A stretch of DNA of 13,472 nt from Endomicrobium sp. Lineage in GTDB: Bacteria; Elusimicrobiota; Endomicrobiia; Endomicrobiales; Endomicrobiaceae. The stretch is taken from assembly GCA_031260765.1 (NCBI GenBank), contig JAISKX010000151.1, positions 1 through 13,472 on the forward strand. Direction: 5' to 3'. Under the pieces are notes generated by a model. That model did not search any database. It was given only the letters and a program-made list of their open reading frames with translations, and was not told the DNA's origin. Positions within the stretch are counted from its first letter, which is position 1. Every line of letters begins with the position of its first letter. The position numbers and the translations under genes are program-made. This document shows, one piece after another, positions 1 through 8,525 of the stretch.

Positions 1-1353
1 CCCCTTGAAACTCGCTACCGAACCAGTGAAATATAGTCCGCCCCCGTATCCTGTAAATGCCGTATTGCTTGTCAATTCTACAATGCTTCCTGTGAAATTA
101 AAGGTTAAGTTCGGCAAATACAAAAATCCGCCATATCCTGCTTTGTTTCCTCGCGCTATCATCCTGCTAATATTGCTTATTTCCATACTCCCAGATATTA
201 GCGCTATATTTCCTACTGATGTTCCGAGACTTGAAAGATTATTTATAAATTCTATGCTGCCATAGTTAAATATTACCTTTGCGCTTGCATTGCCTAAATA
301 TATGATTCCTCCTAACTCAGCGGTATTCCCTGTAAAAACAGAAGTGGAATTAGTAAATCTTATCGTCGCGCCGCTATAAGCCGCTATAATTCCGCCATTG
401 TTTTTTGCCGTATTAGAGGTTGCGTCAATCGTTTGATTTGTAAAATTAAAAATATGACCACTTCCACTATTACTATGTATTATAGCTCCATGAGCTGCAC
501 TATAATTTTTAAAAAAAACTAAATTCCCGCCTCCTACATGAGCCGATGCATCAAGGTCAAATACAATATTATTGCCGCTATATATAAAAAATACCCCTCG
601 CTGATCATAACTCGTATTATTAAGAAAATATGCTTTTTTACCGTAAAAATTAAATCTTGAATTGTCGAAATTAATATAAAAAGCAGAGCCAAGCGACCCA
701 TATCCATTGCTAAACTGTGCGCTTGAAACGCTTGTCCCAAATTCCATTATAGAGCCTTCTGTTACCAAAGCAAAAGGTCCGTCTTGCGCGCTTTTATTGT
801 TATTGAAAATTACCGTAGCGGCATATATATACATTTTAGCGCCATCCCTTAAACGCACAGCGCCGCCGCCAGTCCAACCTTGTGCATAAGGATTTTCATT
901 GTTGTCAAATATCAATCTGTTTGCCCTTATTGTAATACTTGAAGCAGTCCCCATAGCAAATATTGCGCCGCCTCCGCGATCACTCCCATTGCGAGTAGCG
1001 GTATTATTAGTAAATGTAACAGTATTGTTTGGCAAATTTATAAGAAGAGAACCGTTGCCTTCTATGTATATAGCGCCACCTATTTGCGCAGAATTGTTGT
1101 TAAATGTCAGATTGTAATTTCCGCTTGCATTGAGAATTACATTTTGTCCTGTAATATAGATAGCGCCGCCATTGTTACCATTATAAGTATTTCCATTTTG
1201 AAAAGTCGTATTTGCAGATAATGTCTTAGGATTTGTCTCACTTGGAAATGTCCATCGCGTCTGCGCATTGCTCTCTACACAAAATAAGAAAAGCAAAGGC
1301 AAAGCAATAAGCATTAATTTAAGAAAAGATGACAAAGATTTTCTGTTTTTCAT
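1..1353 (-). CDS. Pmp-like beta-helical surface protein, 3' end beyond left edge
   Basis: An uninterrupted reading frame of 451 codons runs from an ATG at 1353 to base 1 with no stop, so the C-terminus lies outside the window. Residues 1 to about 30 form a classic signal peptide: KNRK, a Leu-rich core, and SNA before QT as the probable cleavage site. The rest is Asn/Gly-rich and built from repeated GGA(I/V)-type and FxxN-type motifs, for example NGGAIYITG, IGGAIYIEG, GGGAIFAMG, and FNNNS, FTNNT, FTGNT. This pairing characterises chlamydial polymorphic membrane proteins and related right-handed beta-helix passengers. The predicted role is a secreted or autotransported surface structure, probably adhesive. 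A C-terminal barrel is expected but not seen. It lies 23 nt after the metalloprotease autotransporter and has only a weak GGA ribosome-binding site, so it is probably in the same operon. The coding call is firm; the adhesin role is inference. Confidence 0.87.
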   Translation of the reverse strand, partial: MKNRKSLSSFLKLMLIALPLLFLFCVESNAQTRWTFPSETNPKTLSANTTFQNGNTYNGNNGGAIYITGQNVILNASGNYNLTFNNNSAQIGGAIYIEGNGSLLINLPNNTVTFTNNTATRNGSDRGGGAIFAMGTASSITIRANRLIFDNNENPYAQGWTGGGAVRLRDGAKMYIYAATVIFNNNKSAQDGPFALVTEGSIMEFGTSVSSAQFSNGYGSLGSAFYINFDNSRFNFYGKKAYFLNNTSYDQRGVFFIYSGNNIVFDLDASAHVGGGNLVFFKNYSAAHGAIIHSNSGSGHIFNFTNQTIDATSNTAKNNGGIIAAYSGATIRFTNSTSVFTGNTAELGGIIYLGNASAKVIFNYGSIEFINNLSSLGTSVGNIALISGSMEISNISRMIARGNKAGYGGFLYLPNLTFNFTGSIVELTSNTAFTGYGGGLYFTGSVASFKG

Positions 1354-1376: not shown

Positions 1377-4300
1377 TTAGAATTTGAATATTGCGTTTAA
1401 ATGAGTTATGTGTTTGACGGCGTTTTGGGAAATGTCGGCGTCAAAGTTTATGCCTAATGAGAATGCGCCGCTGAAATCATAGTATAAAACCGTTCCCACT
1501 TGACCTAAGAATGTATCTGTTTCTGTAGAGATATCGGAAATTGAACCGTATTGAGAGAATTCTTTATATGAAATGTCTCTGTTGAACTCTCCGCCTAAAA
1601 CTACATAAGAAATGCCCGCCCTAAGAGTCCATTTGAGATTTTCAATTGGGACTTCAAGAGAAAAACCTGCATTGGGAGCAAGTTTTGTATAGACGGCTTC
1701 TTCTATAATCAATTCTCTGCCGAGACCGTTTTCTTCAGTGATTTTTGGATTTTGGCTAAAACCCAATGAAAAACCTATATAAGGATATAAATTTATAGAT
1801 TGAGTTAAACTCGGCAATTGGGCTTGAGCTGAGAGATTGAGAGAGTATGAAGTCCAATCTGCATTTGGATAGATTGTATCTCCGCTATAATCTATCGTTC
1901 TTTTGACGCTGAAATCTTGCAGCCCTAAACCTAAATTGGCTTTTAACAAAACATTGGAAAATAAATGCGCGCTGTAAAAGCCTAATCTAATGTCTCTAAT
2001 ATCGGCTTTGTCTAAACTTTCTTTGGCTGTTTTTAAGGAAATCCCTGCATATATGCCGAAAAGATTTGAAGCTTGTAGAAATAGCGGAGTTCCAATGGAA
2101 AAACCAAAACCGTCTAAATTAAAGTCGCCTTCATTGCCTTCGTTTTTATATTGGAGAGCGCTGTAATTGACATCTGCCCAGAAAGAGTTTTTTATAATCT
2201 TTTGCGCTTTGGGAATAGATTGTTGAGTCTCATTGTTTTTTTCTTCGGGTTCTTTATTGTCAAGAAAAGAATCATAGTCCATATCCATAAATAAATAATT
2301 CCTTTTTTTCTTTTTGGCTTTTTTAGCCTTTGCTCCGTTTGCAGATTCTGAGGCTGATATATTTGAATATATAATAGGAGCCATATCGTCGGAAGCGCCT
2401 ATGGATAGAGTTTTGTAATAAATCAAACCGCCCAATTGATTTATGGCGCGCGCTATATCTTCAATATTAGACATCATTGTAAGCGGAGATATTATCTTTT
2501 GTTTTAAAATATCATTGTTATCAATCCCGTCAAAAAAATTAACGATTTTGTTTTGAGTAGGAGTTAAGCCTGCAATAGAAGATAAAGCGGATTTTATATC
2601 AACCCGTATTATCCATTGAGAACCGCCTGCATTAGAAATAGTCCAATTTCCCTTAGAAGCTTCTGAAACTATTGAGCCGCTCTGCCATAAATTATTTGGA
2701 TTGTCTAAATAAGAATCAAAGATTAAAGCCTCAACAGAGCCTATGCCGTAAGCTTTGATTATAAGACGGCTGTCAGCCTCTATTTTCATTTGAGTTGAAT
2801 GAATAATATCTGAAATTCCAAGAACACCAGAACTTGCGTCTATGGCAAGCTCTAATGTCCCGAAAATGTCAATATTTTGAGCATATAGAGTTTTGCGTTT
2901 TTGATTGTCCGACATTGAAAATTTGCCGACAGAACTTATTGTGAGATTATCTATATTCGCAGAGGATGATAAAACTTCAACAAAAGCAGATGGATGGTTT
3001 GGCGCAGAAGGGAGTCCGACAATCAAGTCTTTTATATTGATTTGAGAGTTTTCTGAAAATACTACCGTGCCTTTATTGATTTTAAATTCGCCTTGAAAAT
3101 TCGTTATTCCATCTAAAATCAAATTTGAATTCCCGTTTTTCTCAATGAAATTATTATTATTGGGCGCCGATATTCCGCCTTTCATTGTGATATTGGCTTT
3201 ATCGGCGTCTAATATAAGTTTAGAAAAGTTCTCCATATATATGTCATTTGGTTTTGAGTCAGCTTTATTTTCACTAAATAAAACGGCGGATTGTTTTGCC
3301 TTTATTGTTAAAAAAGCAAAATCAACAGAATCGCCGCTCATATATACAGCCCCGCCGCGATTTGCCGCAGTATTGCTGATAAAATTTAAACTGCGGCTTT
3401 CAAATTCAACGGTAGAACGGTCAATATAGAAAACTCCGCCGTCTTCTGAGGCAGTATTTTTTATAAAATTATCGCCATAGGAGCCGCTTTGAGCTTTGAC
3501 AATAGCCCCGTTTGACAAATAAACGGCGCCGCCTTTTTGCGCTGTATTGTTTTGAAAAACTATATCTTTAAATATAGACAAAGAGCTTGGATTTTGAGCG
3601 TATAAGACTGAGCCTTTTTGAGCATTGGCGCTTGTTATCTGTATGTTTTCAATAGTCAAAACAGTATTATTGGACAAATCAAAGAAAGAGCCTTGCGCGC
3701 CGCCGCCTTGAAAAATTAAGCCTGATATTGAATTCCTTTTATGAGTTGGAACAAATCTTGTATCGCCTATAATTTTAAAATCGCCGCTTGCCGCAGCCCC
3801 CAGACTTTCGCTTATAAAATATGGAGAGCCGTATTCTTGTATATCATCAGCCGACATATCAAAAATTCTGTTCCCGCTTTGAGAGTTTAAGGCGAGCAAT
3901 AAATCGCTTAAAGACACTTTTGTTTTTAACCAAAAATAACCGCTGTCTGCATAGCCGCCCGTCCAAGAAGAAGCGGAGAAAGAATATATATATCTGCCCT
4001 CTTGAAAAGTTTTATTATCATTATTGTAAAATTGCAAAGAGCCTGCTGATAAAATTTTAGTCCAATATATGCCCGTTCTTGTAAAACTTGAAAGAGATAT
4101 GCCGTCTAAATATAAGAAACCTGAACCGCTTGCCGCTTGCAAAGAATCGCCGTAAAGATTTTCCCCGCTATAAAACAAATTTATGCTCAAAGAACTCGCC
4201 GAAACCGCTATATTGGGAAAGGACACTGTTCTTGTAGAAAGCCCGTCTCTTAAATCCAAATGAGAATTTTCAAAAGAATATAAAGTTGAGCCGATTGTAT

Positions 4301-6776
4301 AATCTGAAATTGGGAATTTGAGCGAAGCATTTTTAAAAGAGACTGTATTGAAATTGGCATTGTATATAGGGGCTGACAATTTGTATTTGACTTTATATGA
4401 CGCTGGAGAATAACTATCAAATACAGCCTTGCCGTTTATGCCCGTGAATTTGATATTGGAGCCGCCGATTGCCGTCCAATCATCTGAATAAGTATTGTAA
4501 TGATTTAGCAAAGCGTCCGAGCCGATATTTAATTTATACCCTGCGCTGGAAGCATTGATATTTAAAATGCTGTTGGATATATTGTTTTCGCCGGAAAACA
4601 TTTTTGAATCAAGATTAAAAGTAGTTATGCCTGCGCTTTGATTGAAAACTCCATTGAAAACAGAACCATCTCCGCTCATAGTAAATAGCCCATTGCTTGT
4701 TTTGTTTATATTAGCTATGCCGGAAATTGAACCTGAAAGATTTAGATTGCCGCCTACTATATCAATATCCATAGAATAGCCGCCGCCTGCTTTTATATTG
4801 CCGCTATAATTGAAATTGAAAGAGGCGTCAATTTGAGAAGTTTTTTCTCCAGCCGCGTTTTTCCTATATCCGAATGTCAATTTTGTTTTTAAATCATTCA
4901 AATCGCCAAGCGTCATAACAGGCTGTCCGTTTATCCACCATCCTGCAAACCAATAATATTGAACATAATGAAAAATATCTGTGATTTGATTGAAATCAAA
5001 AGAAGGAGACCAATCTGAAATAATATCGCCCGATATTTGCGCGCCGCTCATAATATTTATTTCTTTGACGAAAGCATTTGGAGCTATATAAATAGCCGCT
5101 TTTGCGCCCGATATTGAGCCTGTGATGTCAAACTTTTCAACCAAGGCGCCTTCAAGTTCCGGCAATAAATCGTCCATATTCCAATAAAAAGGATTCCAAT
5201 AGGGATTGACGCCGGCATAGGGGTCAAAATTTGCATGGCGCCTCATATAAGAGCCGCGAAATTCATACATATCGCCCAATATATTGTCGCCGAAATCAAA
5301 TCGCGCGCCTATACCGCCGTCTCCTATTGCCGATAGAGTCCCCTGATGTATTATTTTGTGGTCTTTGCCGTAAGATACTAAAAGAGCCGCGCTTTTTTGT
5401 CCGTCGGAATGTATATTGCTAAAAATTGTCAGTTTATTGTTCCAGCCGTCTATTCTTATCCCGGCGCTCATAGAGCCGTTTGAAAGGACTTCTCCGCGCA
5501 TCTCAACTGTATTTGTAGTTCCGTAAATATGAAGACCTATGGTATAAGAAGTTGAATTGTATTGACCATTTAAATAATCTGTCGCGCTTAGATTTCTTGC
5601 ATAAAAATTAGCGCTTATATTGATATAGGCAATATCATCATTGTAAATAGAATGACCATACATATTCTTGCGGTCTAAGGCTATGCCTATATCTTGGAAA
5701 AGAGCGAGTTCAGCTTCCATAAAAGTATTCCAATTGCGGTAATTTTGATGGCTCATCATAGAATTGCGCAATTCCAAATGGCTTAAATCGGAATCCGACC
5801 CTTCAAAGCCATTGATAGGAATACCGCCTATATTGTTGGGATTATTGTTTTTGTGTATTGCTCCACTGAGAACAGACATAACATTAGAACCTTGAAAAAA
5901 AGCAAACCCACCGATTTCACTATCGTTTAAAGCTGGGTCGCCTTGTCTGATAACTCTAAAATCTGAAGACAAGCCTTCGTTTGAATCCGCAAGCCTGACC
6001 ACTTGATTTACAGTTGCCTGAGTCCCGAAAGAATCTACAAGCTTTTGGTCAAATTTATTCAAATTGACGCCGTCATATTCAAGAAAATAGAGTTTGCCGT
6101 CTCCTCTGAAATATTCAAAACTCATAATGCCCATAGCATGCGCCATCTCATGTATTATCACGGGAACCATACCGTCAATCAAATGATTATTGGGCAATAA
6201 TTCCATAGGTTTAAAAGACCAAGCGCTTGTATCGCCCCAAATATATTCAATCTGCTCAAAGCTTTGACCCATAAAATCCAAAAAAGGAAAAACCAAAGCT
6301 CCTATTCTTATTTGAGCATAAGCCCTTTGAGTATAATTGGGATTATAAGGCTCATAATAGTCGGCTGTATTGTCAAACAGAATGGCATTTGCAAGAGTGG
6401 TAAGCCCATTGCCGTTTGCGCCGTAATCGCTGATAGCGTCGTCGTTTAGATAATTGTAAATACCCATTGAAATTGTTACTGGGGAAGAATTTTGAGGAAG
6501 GGCGCCGAGCAATATCGCCCAATAATCGCCTGCATTTTTTATAGCGTCTATATGCTGAGGCACGAGAGTCCAGAAAAAATCATCGCCCGACGGATTGCTG
6601 CCGTCGGCGTAATTCTCGCCGCTTCCGATAGCTATATCAAAATTAAACAGAGGATTTCCATTTATGGAATTGGTAATCAAAGATTGGCGCGAAGGCATAT
6701 CGGCGTTTAAAGGGATATTTTGAACGCCGATAAATATAGCGAGTAAGAATAATGATATTCCAATTCCTTTTCTCAA
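1377..6776 (-). CDS. Autotransporter with N-terminal metzincin-like zinc metalloprotease domain
   Basis: This 1799-residue protein has a complete type V secretion layout. Residues 1-25 are a signal peptide (hydrophobic core, LNA before DM). Residues about 30-370 form a zinc protease domain: H209-E210-M-A-H213-A-M-G216 is the metzincin HExxHxxG motif. H333 followed by Met-Met at 340-341 and a segment ending ALFQDIG resembles the distal His, Met-turn and C-terminal helix of leishmanolysin-type (M8) enzymes. Residues about 375-1390 are a beta-rich passenger, with Pmp-like GGAV/FxxN repeats near 1045-1165. Residues about 1393-1460 are the usual helical linker (LTPTQNKI). A lysine-rich insert follows near 1480. 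Residues about 1528-1799 are the 270-residue barrel, ending in aromatic Phe. The start is TTG, supported by GGAG 6 nt upstream and by the signal peptide directly after it. Predicted role: surface-exposed or released metalloprotease. The substrate is unknown. Confidence 0.9.
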   Translation of the reverse strand: MRKGIGISLFLLAIFIGVQNIPLNADMPSRQSLITNSINGNPLFNFDIAIGSGENYADGSNPSGDDFFWTLVPQHIDAIKNAGDYWAILLGALPQNSSPVTISMGIYNYLNDDAISDYGANGNGLTTLANAILFDNTADYYEPYNPNYTQRAYAQIRIGALVFPFLDFMGQSFEQIEYIWGDTSAWSFKPMELLPNNHLIDGMVPVIIHEMAHAMGIMSFEYFRGDGKLYFLEYDGVNLNKFDQKLVDSFGTQATVNQVVRLADSNEGLSSDFRVIRQGDPALNDSEIGGFAFFQGSNVMSVLSGAIHKNNNPNNIGGIPINGFEGSDSDLSHLELRNSMMSHQNYRNWNTFMEAELALFQDIGIALDRKNMYGHSIYNDDIAYINISANFYARNLSATDYLNGQYNSTSYTIGLHIYGTTNTVEMRGEVLSNGSMSAGIRIDGWNNKLTIFSNIHSDGQKSAALLVSYGKDHKIIHQGTLSAIGDGGIGARFDFGDNILGDMYEFRGSYMRRHANFDPYAGVNPYWNPFYWNMDDLLPELEGALVEKFDITGSISGAKAAIYIAPNAFVKEINIMSGAQISGDIISDWSPSFDFNQITDIFHYVQYYWFAGWWINGQPVMTLGDLNDLKTKLTFGYRKNAAGEKTSQIDASFNFNYSGNIKAGGGYSMDIDIVGGNLNLSGSISGIANINKTSNGLFTMSGDGSVFNGVFNQSAGITTFNLDSKMFSGENNISNSILNINASSAGYKLNIGSDALLNHYNTYSDDWTAIGGSNIKFTGINGKAVFDSYSPASYKVKYKLSAPIYNANFNTVSFKNASLKFPISDYTIGSTLYSFENSHLDLRDGLSTRTVSFPNIAVSASSLSINLFYSGENLYGDSLQAASGSGFLYLDGISLSSFTRTGIYWTKILSAGSLQFYNNDNKTFQEGRYIYSFSASSWTGGYADSGYFWLKTKVSLSDLLLALNSQSGNRIFDMSADDIQEYGSPYFISESLGAAASGDFKIIGDTRFVPTHKRNSISGLIFQGGGAQGSFFDLSNNTVLTIENIQITSANAQKGSVLYAQNPSSLSIFKDIVFQNNTAQKGGAVYLSNGAIVKAQSGSYGDNFIKNTASEDGGVFYIDRSTVEFESRSLNFISNTAANRGGAVYMSGDSVDFAFLTIKAKQSAVLFSENKADSKPNDIYMENFSKLILDADKANITMKGGISAPNNNNFIEKNGNSNLILDGITNFQGEFKINKGTVVFSENSQINIKDLIVGLPSAPNHPSAFVEVLSSSANIDNLTISSVGKFSMSDNQKRKTLYAQNIDIFGTLELAIDASSGVLGISDIIHSTQMKIEADSRLIIKAYGIGSVEALIFDSYLDNPNNLWQSGSIVSEASKGNWTISNAGGSQWIIRVDIKSALSSIAGLTPTQNKIVNFFDGIDNNDILKQKIISPLTMMSNIEDIARAINQLGGLIYYKTLSIGASDDMAPIIYSNISASESANGAKAKKAKKKKRNYLFMDMDYDSFLDNKEPEEKNNETQQSIPKAQKIIKNSFWADVNYSALQYKNEGNEGDFNLDGFGFSIGTPLFLQASNLFGIYAGISLKTAKESLDKADIRDIRLGFYSAHLFSNVLLKANLGLGLQDFSVKRTIDYSGDTIYPNADWTSYSLNLSAQAQLPSLTQSINLYPYIGFSLGFSQNPKITEENGLGRELIIEEAVYTKLAPNAGFSLEVPIENLKWTLRAGISYVVLGGEFNRDISYKEFSQYGSISDISTETDTFLGQVGTVLYYDFSGAFSLGINFDADISQNAVKHITHLNAIFKF

Positions 6777-6788: not shown

Positions 6789-8420
6789 TCATTTTGCTGT
6801 GTTTTTATTGATTGAAAACTCAACAATCAAATTTTCATCATCTTTTTTGGCGGCAGATGATTTAGCTGCAGTTTTTGATTGGACAGCCGTCTTTTTAGCC
6901 GCAGGCTTTTTAACAGTTGTCTTTTTAGTAGTTTTTTGAGCTGTCTTTTGAGCTGGTTTTTGAACTGTCTTCTGAACTGTTTTCTGAACCGGCTTTTGGA
7001 CGGCAGCAGGCTCTTTTTCCTTTATAGAAGTTTCGGTAACAGTTTCAAGCATTCTATCAGACATCCAATCTTCACTTTGGACATCGTCTATATCTTCAAT
7101 ATAAACTCTATTGATAGGTCTATCAGGCTCTTGAGTTTGAATTCTAACGGGCTCTCGAGTTTGAGTTCTGATTTCTCTCTTTAATTCAACTTCTGTTTCA
7201 TAGGGATATGTATCCGGAGCTGTGCGGACTACTCTTCTTGTTTGTCTGACCGGTTTGGGCTTTTCATTTCCAAAACCAAGCTTTATGCCGCCTTGTATGA
7301 AAAAGCCTGAAAAATCGTCGGCTCTTGTGAAATCAGTATTTATATAAATTTCGGCTATATCGGATATTATCCGTCCCACCCCCAGATTTATTCCCATATA
7401 TACGCTGTCTGTGGGACTGTTGATTATGTTCATGCCGTATTGATTGGACTGTTGAAAAGACACGGTTTTTGAGAAATCAGAGCCCGCCATTATATATCCG
7501 CCGTAAAGAGAAGCGCTAAAATTAAAATTATAGGCGCGGGTCTGACCTCTTAAACCATAATTTATTATATTTTTTGTATAGGCTCCTCTTTCTATCATGA
7601 GATTTGCCGCGCCGCCGCCATTTTCTTTGATAGCGTCATAGGATTGATGAATGCCTCCGATGCCTATAAAAGGGCTTAAACGGTGATAGCCTTGATTTAA
7701 CATATTGACTTCAAATTCAAGCCCCCATTTAAAAGCATTGGAATTGAAATTGCTTTCCGGGCTAAGGCTTGCAAAACGAATTTGCCTTACTGTATGAAAT
7801 TTTTGTATTTCCAATCCCAAGTTTCCCAATATATTGATATATCTGTTTATGCTGGCGCCGTAAAGACCAAATTCAAAAAAACCTATATCGGCTTTATTTG
7901 CCCCTTGCTCTACATTGTTTGACCCATTTCCAATATATAAGCCAAGCGTGATACTGTCGCCTTTGAGCATATCAACCCCAGCCTGCCATTCGCTTTTGCT
8001 GGATTTAAAAGTTTTAGCGTCTTCGTCTTTATTTTCAAAAGAGTCAAAATCAAATTGAAACCATACAACTTGGTCTAATATATAGACATCGCTTTTATTT
8101 TTCTTTATTCTGTCAAAAAGTTTTAGATAATTCTTTAAATTCCCTTGCGCGCTTAAAACATTGATTAAGAAACCGCCGCTCAAATCCTCAAAAGCCGCTT
8201 TGACTCCTTCCCTATTGCCGTTTTCAGACATATTGGCAATAGCCACTTTGAAAACGTTTAAATCTGAACCTGCGCTGCCATGATAATTGTTGAAAAAATT
8301 CTGAACTTCATTCTGATTGTGAGAAATCGGAGATACATCTAAAATCGTAGAAGTTGAGGCGGCAAAACTTCCAGCCGCAAAGACGACAATTGCGGCTAAA
8401 ATTACTAATAGTCTGTTCAT
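6789..8420 (-). CDS. Autotransporter-type outer-membrane barrel with C-terminal basic tail
   Basis: This 543-residue protein starts at the ATG at 8420, chosen because AGAGGA lies 9 nt upstream and a textbook signal peptide (MNRLLVILAA, cleavage after GSFA) follows. An in-frame ATG at 8516 would add 32 residues that mask the signal and has no ribosome-binding site. Residues about 28-105 resemble the helical linker that precedes autotransporter barrels (HNQNEVQNFF, then AFEDLSGGFLINVLSAQG). Residues about 115-384 are alternating amphipathic strands typical of a barrel. There is no passenger before the linker. The final 159 residues (385-543) are charged and low in complexity: an Arg-rich part with two QTxEPxR copies, an acidic stretch (IEDIDDVQSEDW), then Lys/Thr/Gln/Ala repeats. 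The protein therefore does not end in the usual barrel Phe. Its function is unknown; a porin-like or scaffold role is possible. It is the first gene of the surface operon and has its own promoter. Confidence 0.85.
   Translation of the reverse strand: MNRLLVILAAIVVFAAGSFAASTSTILDVSPISHNQNEVQNFFNNYHGSAGSDLNVFKVAIANMSENGNREGVKAAFEDLSGGFLINVLSAQGNLKNYLKLFDRIKKNKSDVYILDQVVWFQFDFDSFENKDEDAKTFKSSKSEWQAGVDMLKGDSITLGLYIGNGSNNVEQGANKADIGFFEFGLYGASINRYINILGNLGLEIQKFHTVRQIRFASLSPESNFNSNAFKWGLEFEVNMLNQGYHRLSPFIGIGGIHQSYDAIKENGGGAANLMIERGAYTKNIINYGLRGQTRAYNFNFSASLYGGYIMAGSDFSKTVSFQQSNQYGMNIINSPTDSVYMGINLGVGRIISDIAEIYINTDFTRADDFSGFFIQGGIKLGFGNEKPKPVRQTRRVVRTAPDTYPYETEVELKREIRTQTREPVRIQTQEPDRPINRVYIEDIDDVQSEDWMSDRMLETVTETSIKEKEPAAVQKPVQKTVQKTVQKPAQKTAQKTTKKTTVKKPAAKKTAVQSKTAAKSSAAKKDDENLIVEFSINKNTAK
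6840..7007 (-). repeat. Imperfect tandem 4-residue (12-bp) repeats encoding a Lys/Gln/Thr-rich tail
   Basis: Residues about 472-527 of the barrel protein follow a four-residue period, roughly K-(P/T)-(V/A/T)-Q: KPVQ, KTVQ, KTVQ, KPAQ, KTAQ, KTTK. They then drift into AAKK/SKTAAK segments. At DNA level this appears as repeated 12-bp units. The encoded segment is strongly basic and probably disordered. Confidence 0.75.
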
Positions 8421-8429
8421 GATTAAATT

Positions 8430-8435
8430 TCCTCT
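8430..8435 (-). promoter_or_regulatory. Strong ribosome-binding site for the barrel protein
   Basis: AGAGGA on the minus strand sits 9 nt upstream of the ATG at 8420. It decides in favour of this start over the in-frame ATG at 8516, which has only AT-rich sequence in front of it. Confidence 0.75.
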
Positions 8436-8507
8436 CTTTTTTATGCGCTGTTTGCGCTTTATAGCTACCCCTGCCTCGCAAAGAGACAGAATGATTGAGA
8501 AATTGAT

Positions 8508-8525
8508 AAAAATCAATGATTTTTT
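8508..8525. promoter_or_regulatory. Palindromic AT-rich box, promoter-proximal leader copy
   Basis: Bases 8508-8524 read AAAAATCA-A-TGATTTTT, a perfect 8+1+8 palindrome. It lies about 25 to 40 nt downstream of the expected transcription start of the surface operon. The same box with one base changed occurs at 8586-8603 on the other side of the promoter. An operator for a dimeric regulator is plausible, but chance similarity in AT-rich DNA cannot be excluded. Confidence 0.4.

What the first reader, a model, noticed from the sequence alone, without database searches (positions are those of the whole stretch)
1377..6776. Metzincin-like metalloprotease carried on a classical autotransporter
Sequence shows signal peptide, HEMAHAMG zinc motif (nt 6152-6126), long beta-rich passenger, LTPTQ-type linker and a C-terminal barrel ending in Phe. 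Known autotransporter proteases are mostly serine proteases (SPATE/S6 and subtilisin/S8 types). A leishmanolysin-like metzincin at the tip of a 1799-residue type Va protein is an uncommon combination and may define a distinct secreted protease family.
Basis: partly seen in the sequence, partly recalled or inferred. Interest (0 to 1): 0.72.

Follow-up and report, generated by a model that had tools for sequence, protein, structure and literature searches.

The report
Widespread surface metalloprotease on autotransporters
A termite-gut bacterium carries a large self-exporting surface protein tipped with what looks like a zinc protease related to leishmanolysin, and the same unannotated arrangement turns up in many gut and plant-associated bacteria.

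Summary
ORF 1377-6776 (-) encodes a cysteine-free 1799-aa protein: signal peptide, zinc motif HEMAHAMG (aa 209-216), conserved stem, PMP repeats, LTPTQ linker and PF03797 barrel ending in Phe. The reading is largely right, but the combination is not rare. One genome scan gave 79 loci (best 80 of 131 relatives kept), labelled as six phyla. All 79 carry HExxHxxG and a third-ligand block H-x-E-L-x-N; 77 keep the Met-turn Met; all 67 ORFs of at least 900 aa that reach a stop carry the barrel. No Pfam or NCBIfam model fits the window's domain above cut-off. Profile comparison puts it nearest bacterial M8 (leishmanolysin), outside the zinc helix too; M10 matches only at that helix. Against: no significant PDB match for two confident models, and no Pfam M8 hit. 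I read it as a divergent M8-like insertion metzincin on a type Va autotransporter, a new widespread family. Proteolysis is inferred, not shown.

The parts
1377..6776 (-). 1799-aa autotransporter with N-terminal metzincin domain
   Evidence: PF03797 barrel and PMP repeats
6702..6776 (-). signal peptide, aa 1-25 (by inspection)
   Evidence: charged start, hydrophobic core; no signal-peptide program was available
5643..6701 (-). metzincin domain, aa 26-378
   Evidence: AlphaFold2 on aa 25-400 with 54 rows: mean pLDDT 86.8, pTM 0.88; conserved block
6129..6152 (-). zinc-binding and catalytic motif HEMAHAMG, aa 209-216
   Evidence: HExxHxxG in 79 of 79 loci; lies in predicted helix, model residues 179-191
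5781..6128 (-). stretch of 116 residues between the motif glycine and the third histidine (aa 217-332)
   Evidence: 95-169 residues in 79 loci, median 105
5745..5783 (-). third zinc ligand H333 and Met-turn M341 (SHLELRNSMMSHQ, aa 332-344)
   Evidence: invariant in A1; aligned to H-W..NELMTG of bacterial M8 proteins
5685..5717 (-). C-terminal helix EAELALFQDIG, aa 354-364
   Evidence: aligned to the DLGY helix of M8 proteins
4557..5642 (-). conserved stem, aa 379-740, presumed beta-helix (not modelled)
   Evidence: about 300 residues align among 19 members of several phyla; shared by endomicrobial relatives
3027..3641 (-). PMP-type repeats, about aa 1046-1250
   Evidence: PF02415 and TIGR01376
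2427..2567 (-). linker LTPTQ...INQLGG, aa 1404-1450
   Evidence: resemblance to the usual autotransporter linker is recalled
1380..2183 (-). outer-membrane beta-barrel, aa 1532-1799, ends in Phe
   Evidence: PF03797 E 6.1e-20, aa 1532-1779

Best explanation
The gene encodes a type Va autotransporter whose N-terminal tip is a zinc endopeptidase of the metzincin clan, built like leishmanolysin: HExxHxxG, then a long insert, then a third histidine and a Met-turn. The likely course (from recalled knowledge of autotransporters) is as follows. The signal peptide takes the chain through Sec. The barrel inserts with the help of the genome's BamA-like Omp85 protein. The cysteine-free passenger threads out C-terminus first and stacks into a beta-rich stem. 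The metzincin at the N-terminus then emerges last, folds outside and takes up zinc. No cysteine-switch propeptide is evident, so export itself may keep it inactive inside the cell. It then cuts proteins at or near the cell surface: those of the host or partner organism, or other autotransporters on the same cell. Shown: domain order, conservation, spread and M8-like profile. Inferred: zinc binding, proteolysis, surface exposure and substrates.
For: Barrel and repeats. H209, E210, H213, G216, H333 and M341 invariant in 13 endomicrobial domains not picked by motif. HExxHxxG in 79 of 79 loci, third-His block in 79 of 79, Met-turn Met in 77 of 79. Barrel in 67 of 67 ORFs of at least 900 aa that reach a stop, 61 of them ending in Phe. 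Confident models with the zinc motif in a helix. M8 profile score 59.0 against a maximum of 23.3 in 50 shuffles. Halves without the zinc motif: M8 25.1 and 28.1 (maxima of 60 shuffles 18.8 and 15.0), M10 13.9 and 9.1 (maxima 17.0 and 17.4). Against P. reticulitermitis, the first 700 residues are 69-89% identical per 100-residue block and the rest 50-67%. Zero cysteines. BamA-like Omp85 in the genome.
Against: No significant PDB match for either model (best E 0.12 and 0.13), and leishmanolysin is not among the 50 rows listed in either. No Pfam M8 hit in the window protein; 1 of 54 domains at E 0.042. M10 scores almost as high over the whole domain, 52.3. The two M8 half-domain matches, though above all shuffles, have hhalign probabilities of only 14% and 35%, and the default local alignment with M8 reported just a 25-column N-terminal helix. 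Only five M8 and six M10 comparators were used. Met-turn conservation in the 79 loci is partly circular, because the scan patterns used that block. Two of 79 have Leu at the Met-turn. Three of 79 are short closed frames without a barrel in frame. No activity data exist.
Confidence: 0.8

Rival explanations
1. The domain is a metzincin of another kind (M10/MMP-like or astacin-like, or its own line) that gained its long insert independently of M8.
For: Full-domain hhalign score with M10 is close (52.3 against 59.0). Pfam M10 is the commonest weak hit, 22 of 54, best E 8.3e-4. The top 11 PDB matches for the Enterobacter member are karilysin and MMPs, none significant.
Against: Without the zinc helix, M10 falls within the shuffle range while M8 stays above all 60 shuffles in both halves. 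The third His is about 100 residues behind the motif, not three, as in M8.
Confidence: 0.17
2. A metzincin-derived pseudo-enzyme: it binds zinc or a ligand as an adhesive tip and does not cut proteins.
For: No activity data. One own-genome paralogue (L004) has lost the motif glycine, most of the insert and the Met-turn His yet keeps an open 873-aa frame. Many autotransporters are adhesins (recalled).
Against: The catalytic Glu is kept along with both His in 79 of 79 loci; binding alone would not need Glu.
Confidence: 0.1
3. A question of role, not exclusive of the best explanation: the protease acts mainly on its own cell, releasing or maturing this and neighbouring autotransporters, rather than on foreign proteins.
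For: Seventeen other places in a 63%-complete genome match the barrel. Autotransporter-like genes lie on both sides, and the upstream barrel gene is also next to it in P. reticulitermitis. SphB1 and NalP are recalled precedents among serine-type autotransporters.
Against: No cleavage site or partner was identified. Members also occur beside unrelated genes in one E. coli chromosome and on two plasmids viewed.
Confidence: 0.3
4. Chance HExxH in an adhesin.
For: The motif is short.
Against: Invariance across 13 unselected endomicrobial domains and presence in 79 of 79 loci.
Confidence: 0.01

Closest known systems
Peptidase family M8 (leishmanolysin, PF01457), bacterial members
   Same: HExxHxxG, long insert, third His followed by N-x-L-M, C-terminal D-x-G-Y helix; profile match in both halves
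   Different: No PF01457 hit in the window protein, 1 of 54 domains at E 0.042; longer insert; no cysteines in the window protein; on a barrel in 67 of 67 ORFs tested; invariant His and Gln after the Met-turn
NF038122 family metalloprotease
   Same: Best named NCBIfam match: 38 of 54 domains at E up to 0.1, best E 2.7e-7, but none for the window's own domain
   Different: Of eight full-length members examined, three match, with 30.0 bits at best against a cut-off of 80, around the zinc helix only
SPATE (S6) and subtilisin (S8) autotransporter proteases
   Same: Same secretion type; a protease in the passenger; three of eight members examined match the C-terminal part of the EprS model, far below its cut-off
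   Different: Zinc metzincin instead of a serine protease; no S6 or S8 hit
PMP-type and other type Va autotransporters
   Same: PF03797 barrel, PMP repeats
   Different: N-terminal enzyme domain with its own conserved stem

Membership tests
Type Va autotransporter | C-terminal PF03797 barrel ending in Phe | tested here: met
   (E 6.1e-20); 67 of 67 homologous ORFs tested have the barrel, 61 of 67 end in Phe
Type Va autotransporter | N-terminal signal peptide | tested here: met
   by inspection only; no signal-peptide program
Type Va autotransporter | passenger exposed outside the cell | not testable with these tools
   needs protease shaving or microscopy
Metzincin clan MA(M) | HExxHxxG with catalytic Glu | tested here: met
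Metzincin clan MA(M) | third ligand and Met-turn behind it | tested here: met
   by sequence: H333 and M341 invariant in A1; Met in 77 of 79 loci; geometry not measured
Metzincin clan MA(M) | fold matches solved metzincins | tested here: inconclusive
   no PDB match at E <= 0.001; the window model's top nine are zincins, the Enterobacter model's top 11 are all metzincins
Peptidase M8 (PF01457) | score over the family's curated cut-off | tested here: not met
   no hit in the window protein or its domain; 1 of 54 domains at E 0.042
Peptidase M8 (PF01457) | long insert between motif Gly and third His | tested here: met
   116 residues, 95-169 in 79 loci
Peptidase M8 (PF01457) | profile similarity outside the zinc helix | tested here: met
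   above all 60 shuffles in both halves, but hhalign probabilities only 14% and 35%
Peptidase M8 (PF01457) | disulfides and cysteine-switch propeptide (recalled for leishmanolysin) | tested here: not met
   0 Cys in the window protein; 28 of 79 domains have none
NF038122 | 80-bit cut-off | tested here: not met
   no hit for the window's domain; 30.0 bits at best among eight members
SPATE / S8 autotransporter protease | serine protease domain | tested here: not met
   no such hit in Pfam

The most novel reading that the evidence does not exclude
A whole class of type Va secreted metzincins, spread over several phyla of two-membrane bacteria and defined by an M8-like tip on a conserved stem and barrel, has gone unrecognised. 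The tip has no cysteine switch and is kept inactive by export itself, becoming active only after it emerges last and folds outside.
Probability: 0.5. Interest if true: 0.72.

Novelty: new variant of a known kind. Interest (0 to 1): 0.62.

Why it matters
The autotransporter proteases usually described are serine proteases (recalled; the two surveys seen in passages name no metalloprotease). A metzincin counterpart adds an enzyme class to type V secretion and gives a likely function to proteins now named only by their barrel or as hypothetical, among them proteins of Enterobacter, Pandoraea, Bradyrhizobium, Campylobacter, Helicobacter and a few E. coli. It also raises a testable question: how a secreted metzincin does without a cysteine-switch propeptide. 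In termite guts it offers a molecular handle on how Endomicrobia interact with flagellates or the host.

Tried and rejected
Chance motif: rejected on conservation. Direct M8 membership by Pfam: not met. NF038122 membership: far below cut-off in the members examined. M10-type: zinc helix only. PDB sequence search: no hit for the single domain; the profiles' best was myroilysin (E 0.0068 with A1, 0.0045 with A2), around the zinc helix only. Viral relatives: none confirmed among 109 pattern matches in viral contigs. Foldseek against viral models gave two hits at E <= 0.001, to a Cafeteria roenbergensis virus protein and an Indivirus protein, not followed up. M8 comparators: none in 247 Elusimicrobiota genomes or 14 controls; five of 299 genomes of another phylum. 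M10 comparators came from 119 Elusimicrobiota genomes; of seven loci tried, six gave a usable sequence. Alignment A5 holds one protein and its own part; it served only as a weak comparator.

In print: PMC full-text searches for autotransporter with metzincin, HEXXH, leishmanolysin, metallopeptidase or metalloproteinase, and for six fixed phrases, listed nothing that, from titles and abstract starts, describes a metalloprotease autotransporter; most of those papers were not opened. Passages were looked up in PMC8111173 (matrix metalloproteases of the host only) and PMC5861075 (peptidases of other secretion systems); in PMC12940168 my three terms had no occurrence, and its nine 'metalloproteinase' mentions were not looked up. 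Two autotransporter surveys were seen in passages only: PMC3419190 (no 'metallo' or 'zinc'; 12 of 22 places shown) and PMC9289746 (no 'metallo', 'zinc' or 'leishmanolysin'). Searches on Elusimicrobia and autotransporters gave no paper on such proteins by title. Subscription papers are not covered.

Full report
WHAT IS THERE. The ORF at 1377-6776 (-) is intact and encodes 1799 aa from a TTG start. By inspection it opens with a signal peptide of about 25 residues. Pfam finds the autotransporter barrel at aa 1532-1779 (E 6.1e-20) and PMP repeats, and no peptidase; NCBIfam gives only repeats. The domain alone gives only M64 at E 0.21 in Pfam and nothing in NCBIfam. The zinc motif HEMAHAMG is aa 209-216, nt 6152-6129. 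The protein has no cysteine.

WHOSE GENOME. The window is contig C236 of a 1.25-Mb genome, 63% complete. The only same-genus genome is G001. Three of its contigs agree in length and match with Candidatus Parendomicrobium reticulitermitis records, so the genus is Parendomicrobium by inference. [quoted passage not shown] The window may be the second species, P. porotermitis. The same paper says BamBCD is absent from Endomicrobiaceae; the window's genome does have a BamA-like Omp85 protein.

CONSERVATION. Whole-domain searches found relatives in 8 of 60 genomes, the window's own included, all in its family, and with a profile in 12 of 247 Elusimicrobiota genomes: 8 in its family, 4 in one other, one of those weak and partial. 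The own genome has three further paralogues. Fourteen domains were aligned. In 13 of them (the degenerate L004 left out; a 60-residue fragment, L020, was never aligned), H209, E210, H213, G216, H333, M341 and H343 are invariant, among 41 invariant of 238 ungapped columns. L004 has HELTHLMS, a shortened insert and MSG for MSH.

SPREAD. One scan of the genome collection found 131 relatives; the best 80 gave 79 loci. By record title they are Pseudomonadota 56, Elusimicrobiota 9, Thermodesulfobacteriota 8, Campylobacterota 3, Bacillota (Phascolarctobacterium) 2, and a single MAG placed in Myxococcota; many are MAGs, whose bins can be wrong. HExxHxxG stands in 79 of 79; it was not in the scan patterns. 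The third-His block stands in 79 of 79 and the Met-turn Met in 77 of 79, with Leu in L052 and L078; that block was in the patterns, so its conservation is partly circular. Of 79 loci, 9 run off the contig at the 3' end and 3 are short closed frames without a barrel in frame (L053, L057, L060; cause not tested). The other 67, of which 65 are closed at both ends, all carry PF03797, and 61 end in Phe. An alignment of 19 members, a chosen sample, shows that about 300 residues after the protease are also shared across phyla, so the family is defined by protease plus stem. Alignment A2, used for modelling, holds the window and 53 of the 79 loci; L052, L078 and L037 are among the 26 left out. In a quick tree of 85 domains the Elusimicrobiota loci named form one side of a branch (support 93), but two members from another Elusimicrobiota family (L114, L115) fall elsewhere on a long branch.

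WHICH METALLOPROTEASE. The best named matches are weak. NF038122 is hit by 38 of 54 domains (E up to 0.1, best 2.7e-7; not by the window's), but in eight full-length members only three match, with 30.0 bits at best against a cut-off of 80, around the zinc helix only. Pfam M10 is hit by 22 of 54, best E 8.3e-4; Pfam M8 by 1 of 54, E 0.042. I therefore fetched five bacterial M8 proteins and M10 proteins, six of them usable, and compared profiles. Over the full domain M8 scores 59.0 and M10 52.3; 50 shuffles each reach at most 23.3 and 21.3. Without the zinc helix, M8 stays above all 60 shuffles in both halves (25.1 against 18.8; 28.1 against 15.0) and M10 does not (13.9 against 17.0; 9.1 against 17.4). 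The M8 half matches have hhalign probabilities of only 14% and 35%, and the default local alignment shows just an N-terminal helix; the forced alignment pairs zinc helix, third His, N-x-L-M Met-turn and final D-x-G helix end to end. The insert of 116 residues (95-169 in the family) is the M8 type of build. A single related-looking protein (L122) scores like M8 in its C-terminal half, 25.0, without a shuffle control.

STRUCTURE. AlphaFold2 gives confident models for the window domain (pLDDT 86.8, pTM 0.88) and for the Enterobacter cloacae member (88.5, 0.87), with HExxH in a helix. Foldseek finds no PDB match at E <= 0.001 for either. The window model's first nine hits are zincins, and the Enterobacter model's first eleven are all metzincins of the MMP kind, karilysin first. 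Leishmanolysin is not in the 50 rows listed of 88 and 71. So the fold search agrees with a zincin but does not confirm M8. The structural-alignment library was not available.

SURROUNDINGS. Upstream lies a 575-aa protein with a barrel at aa 151-393, also adjacent in P. reticulitermitis (63% identity); further on are pheT, pheS, a TPR protein and trkA/trkH; downstream is another PMP-repeat protein cut by the contig end. Compared with P. reticulitermitis, the first 700 residues are the best conserved part of the protein. Elsewhere, relatives of the Enterobacter member sit on 16 of 72,556 plasmid records, and relatives of the Citrobacter member in 6 of 5,426 E. coli genomes, beside transposase genes in the E. 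coli region and the Erwinia plasmid viewed. In the annotated records they are named by the barrel only or as hypothetical proteins.

HOW IT WORKS. Shown: the order of domains, conservation of the catalytic residues, and linkage to a barrel wherever a long ORF reaches its stop. Inferred: Sec export, Omp85-assisted insertion, folding of the tip outside, zinc binding and cleavage of surface proteins. Substrates are unknown. Processing of other autotransporters and attack on flagellate or host proteins are both open.

NOVELTY. Both parts are known kinds; the combination and the family were not found in the searches, which cover openly licensed PMC papers only.

Noticed in passing
window 6789-8516 (-): Autotransporter-type barrel (aa 151-393) followed by about 180 residues of charged, Lys/Thr/Pro-rich tail; an unusual C-terminal extension behind a barrel. 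Syntenic in P. reticulitermitis.
   Followed up: partly
window 1-1353 (-): Another PMP-repeat protein with a signal-like start, cut by the contig end.
   Followed up: no
L004 (G000:C250): Own-genome paralogue with degenerate zinc and Met-turn motifs but an open 873-aa frame; may be a pseudo-enzyme.
   Followed up: no
own genome G000: Seventeen other places match the autotransporter barrel (the window's own neighbour among them) although the genome is only 63% complete.
   Followed up: no
The genome search, genus g7: The 12 genomes of genus g7 (1.0-1.3 Mb) listed lack the protease; if g7 is the intracellular genus Endomicrobiellum, which was not checked, the gene may track life outside the flagellate cell.
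   Followed up: no
L036, L037: The non-Elusimicrobiota rows that group with the endomicrobial ones in the quick tree are MAGs labelled Deltaproteobacteria and Rickettsiales (L037 has a long branch); gene exchange or misbinning is possible.
   Followed up: partly
model md1c912c41e2d: Foldseek links the domain to uncharacterised giant-virus proteins of Cafeteria roenbergensis virus and Indivirus (E under 1e-4).
   Followed up: no
L122 (Bradyrhizobium embrapense genome): A protein with HELMHGFG, an insert and LMNG Met-turn that looks like another insertion metzincin below the NF038122 cut-off.
   Followed up: partly
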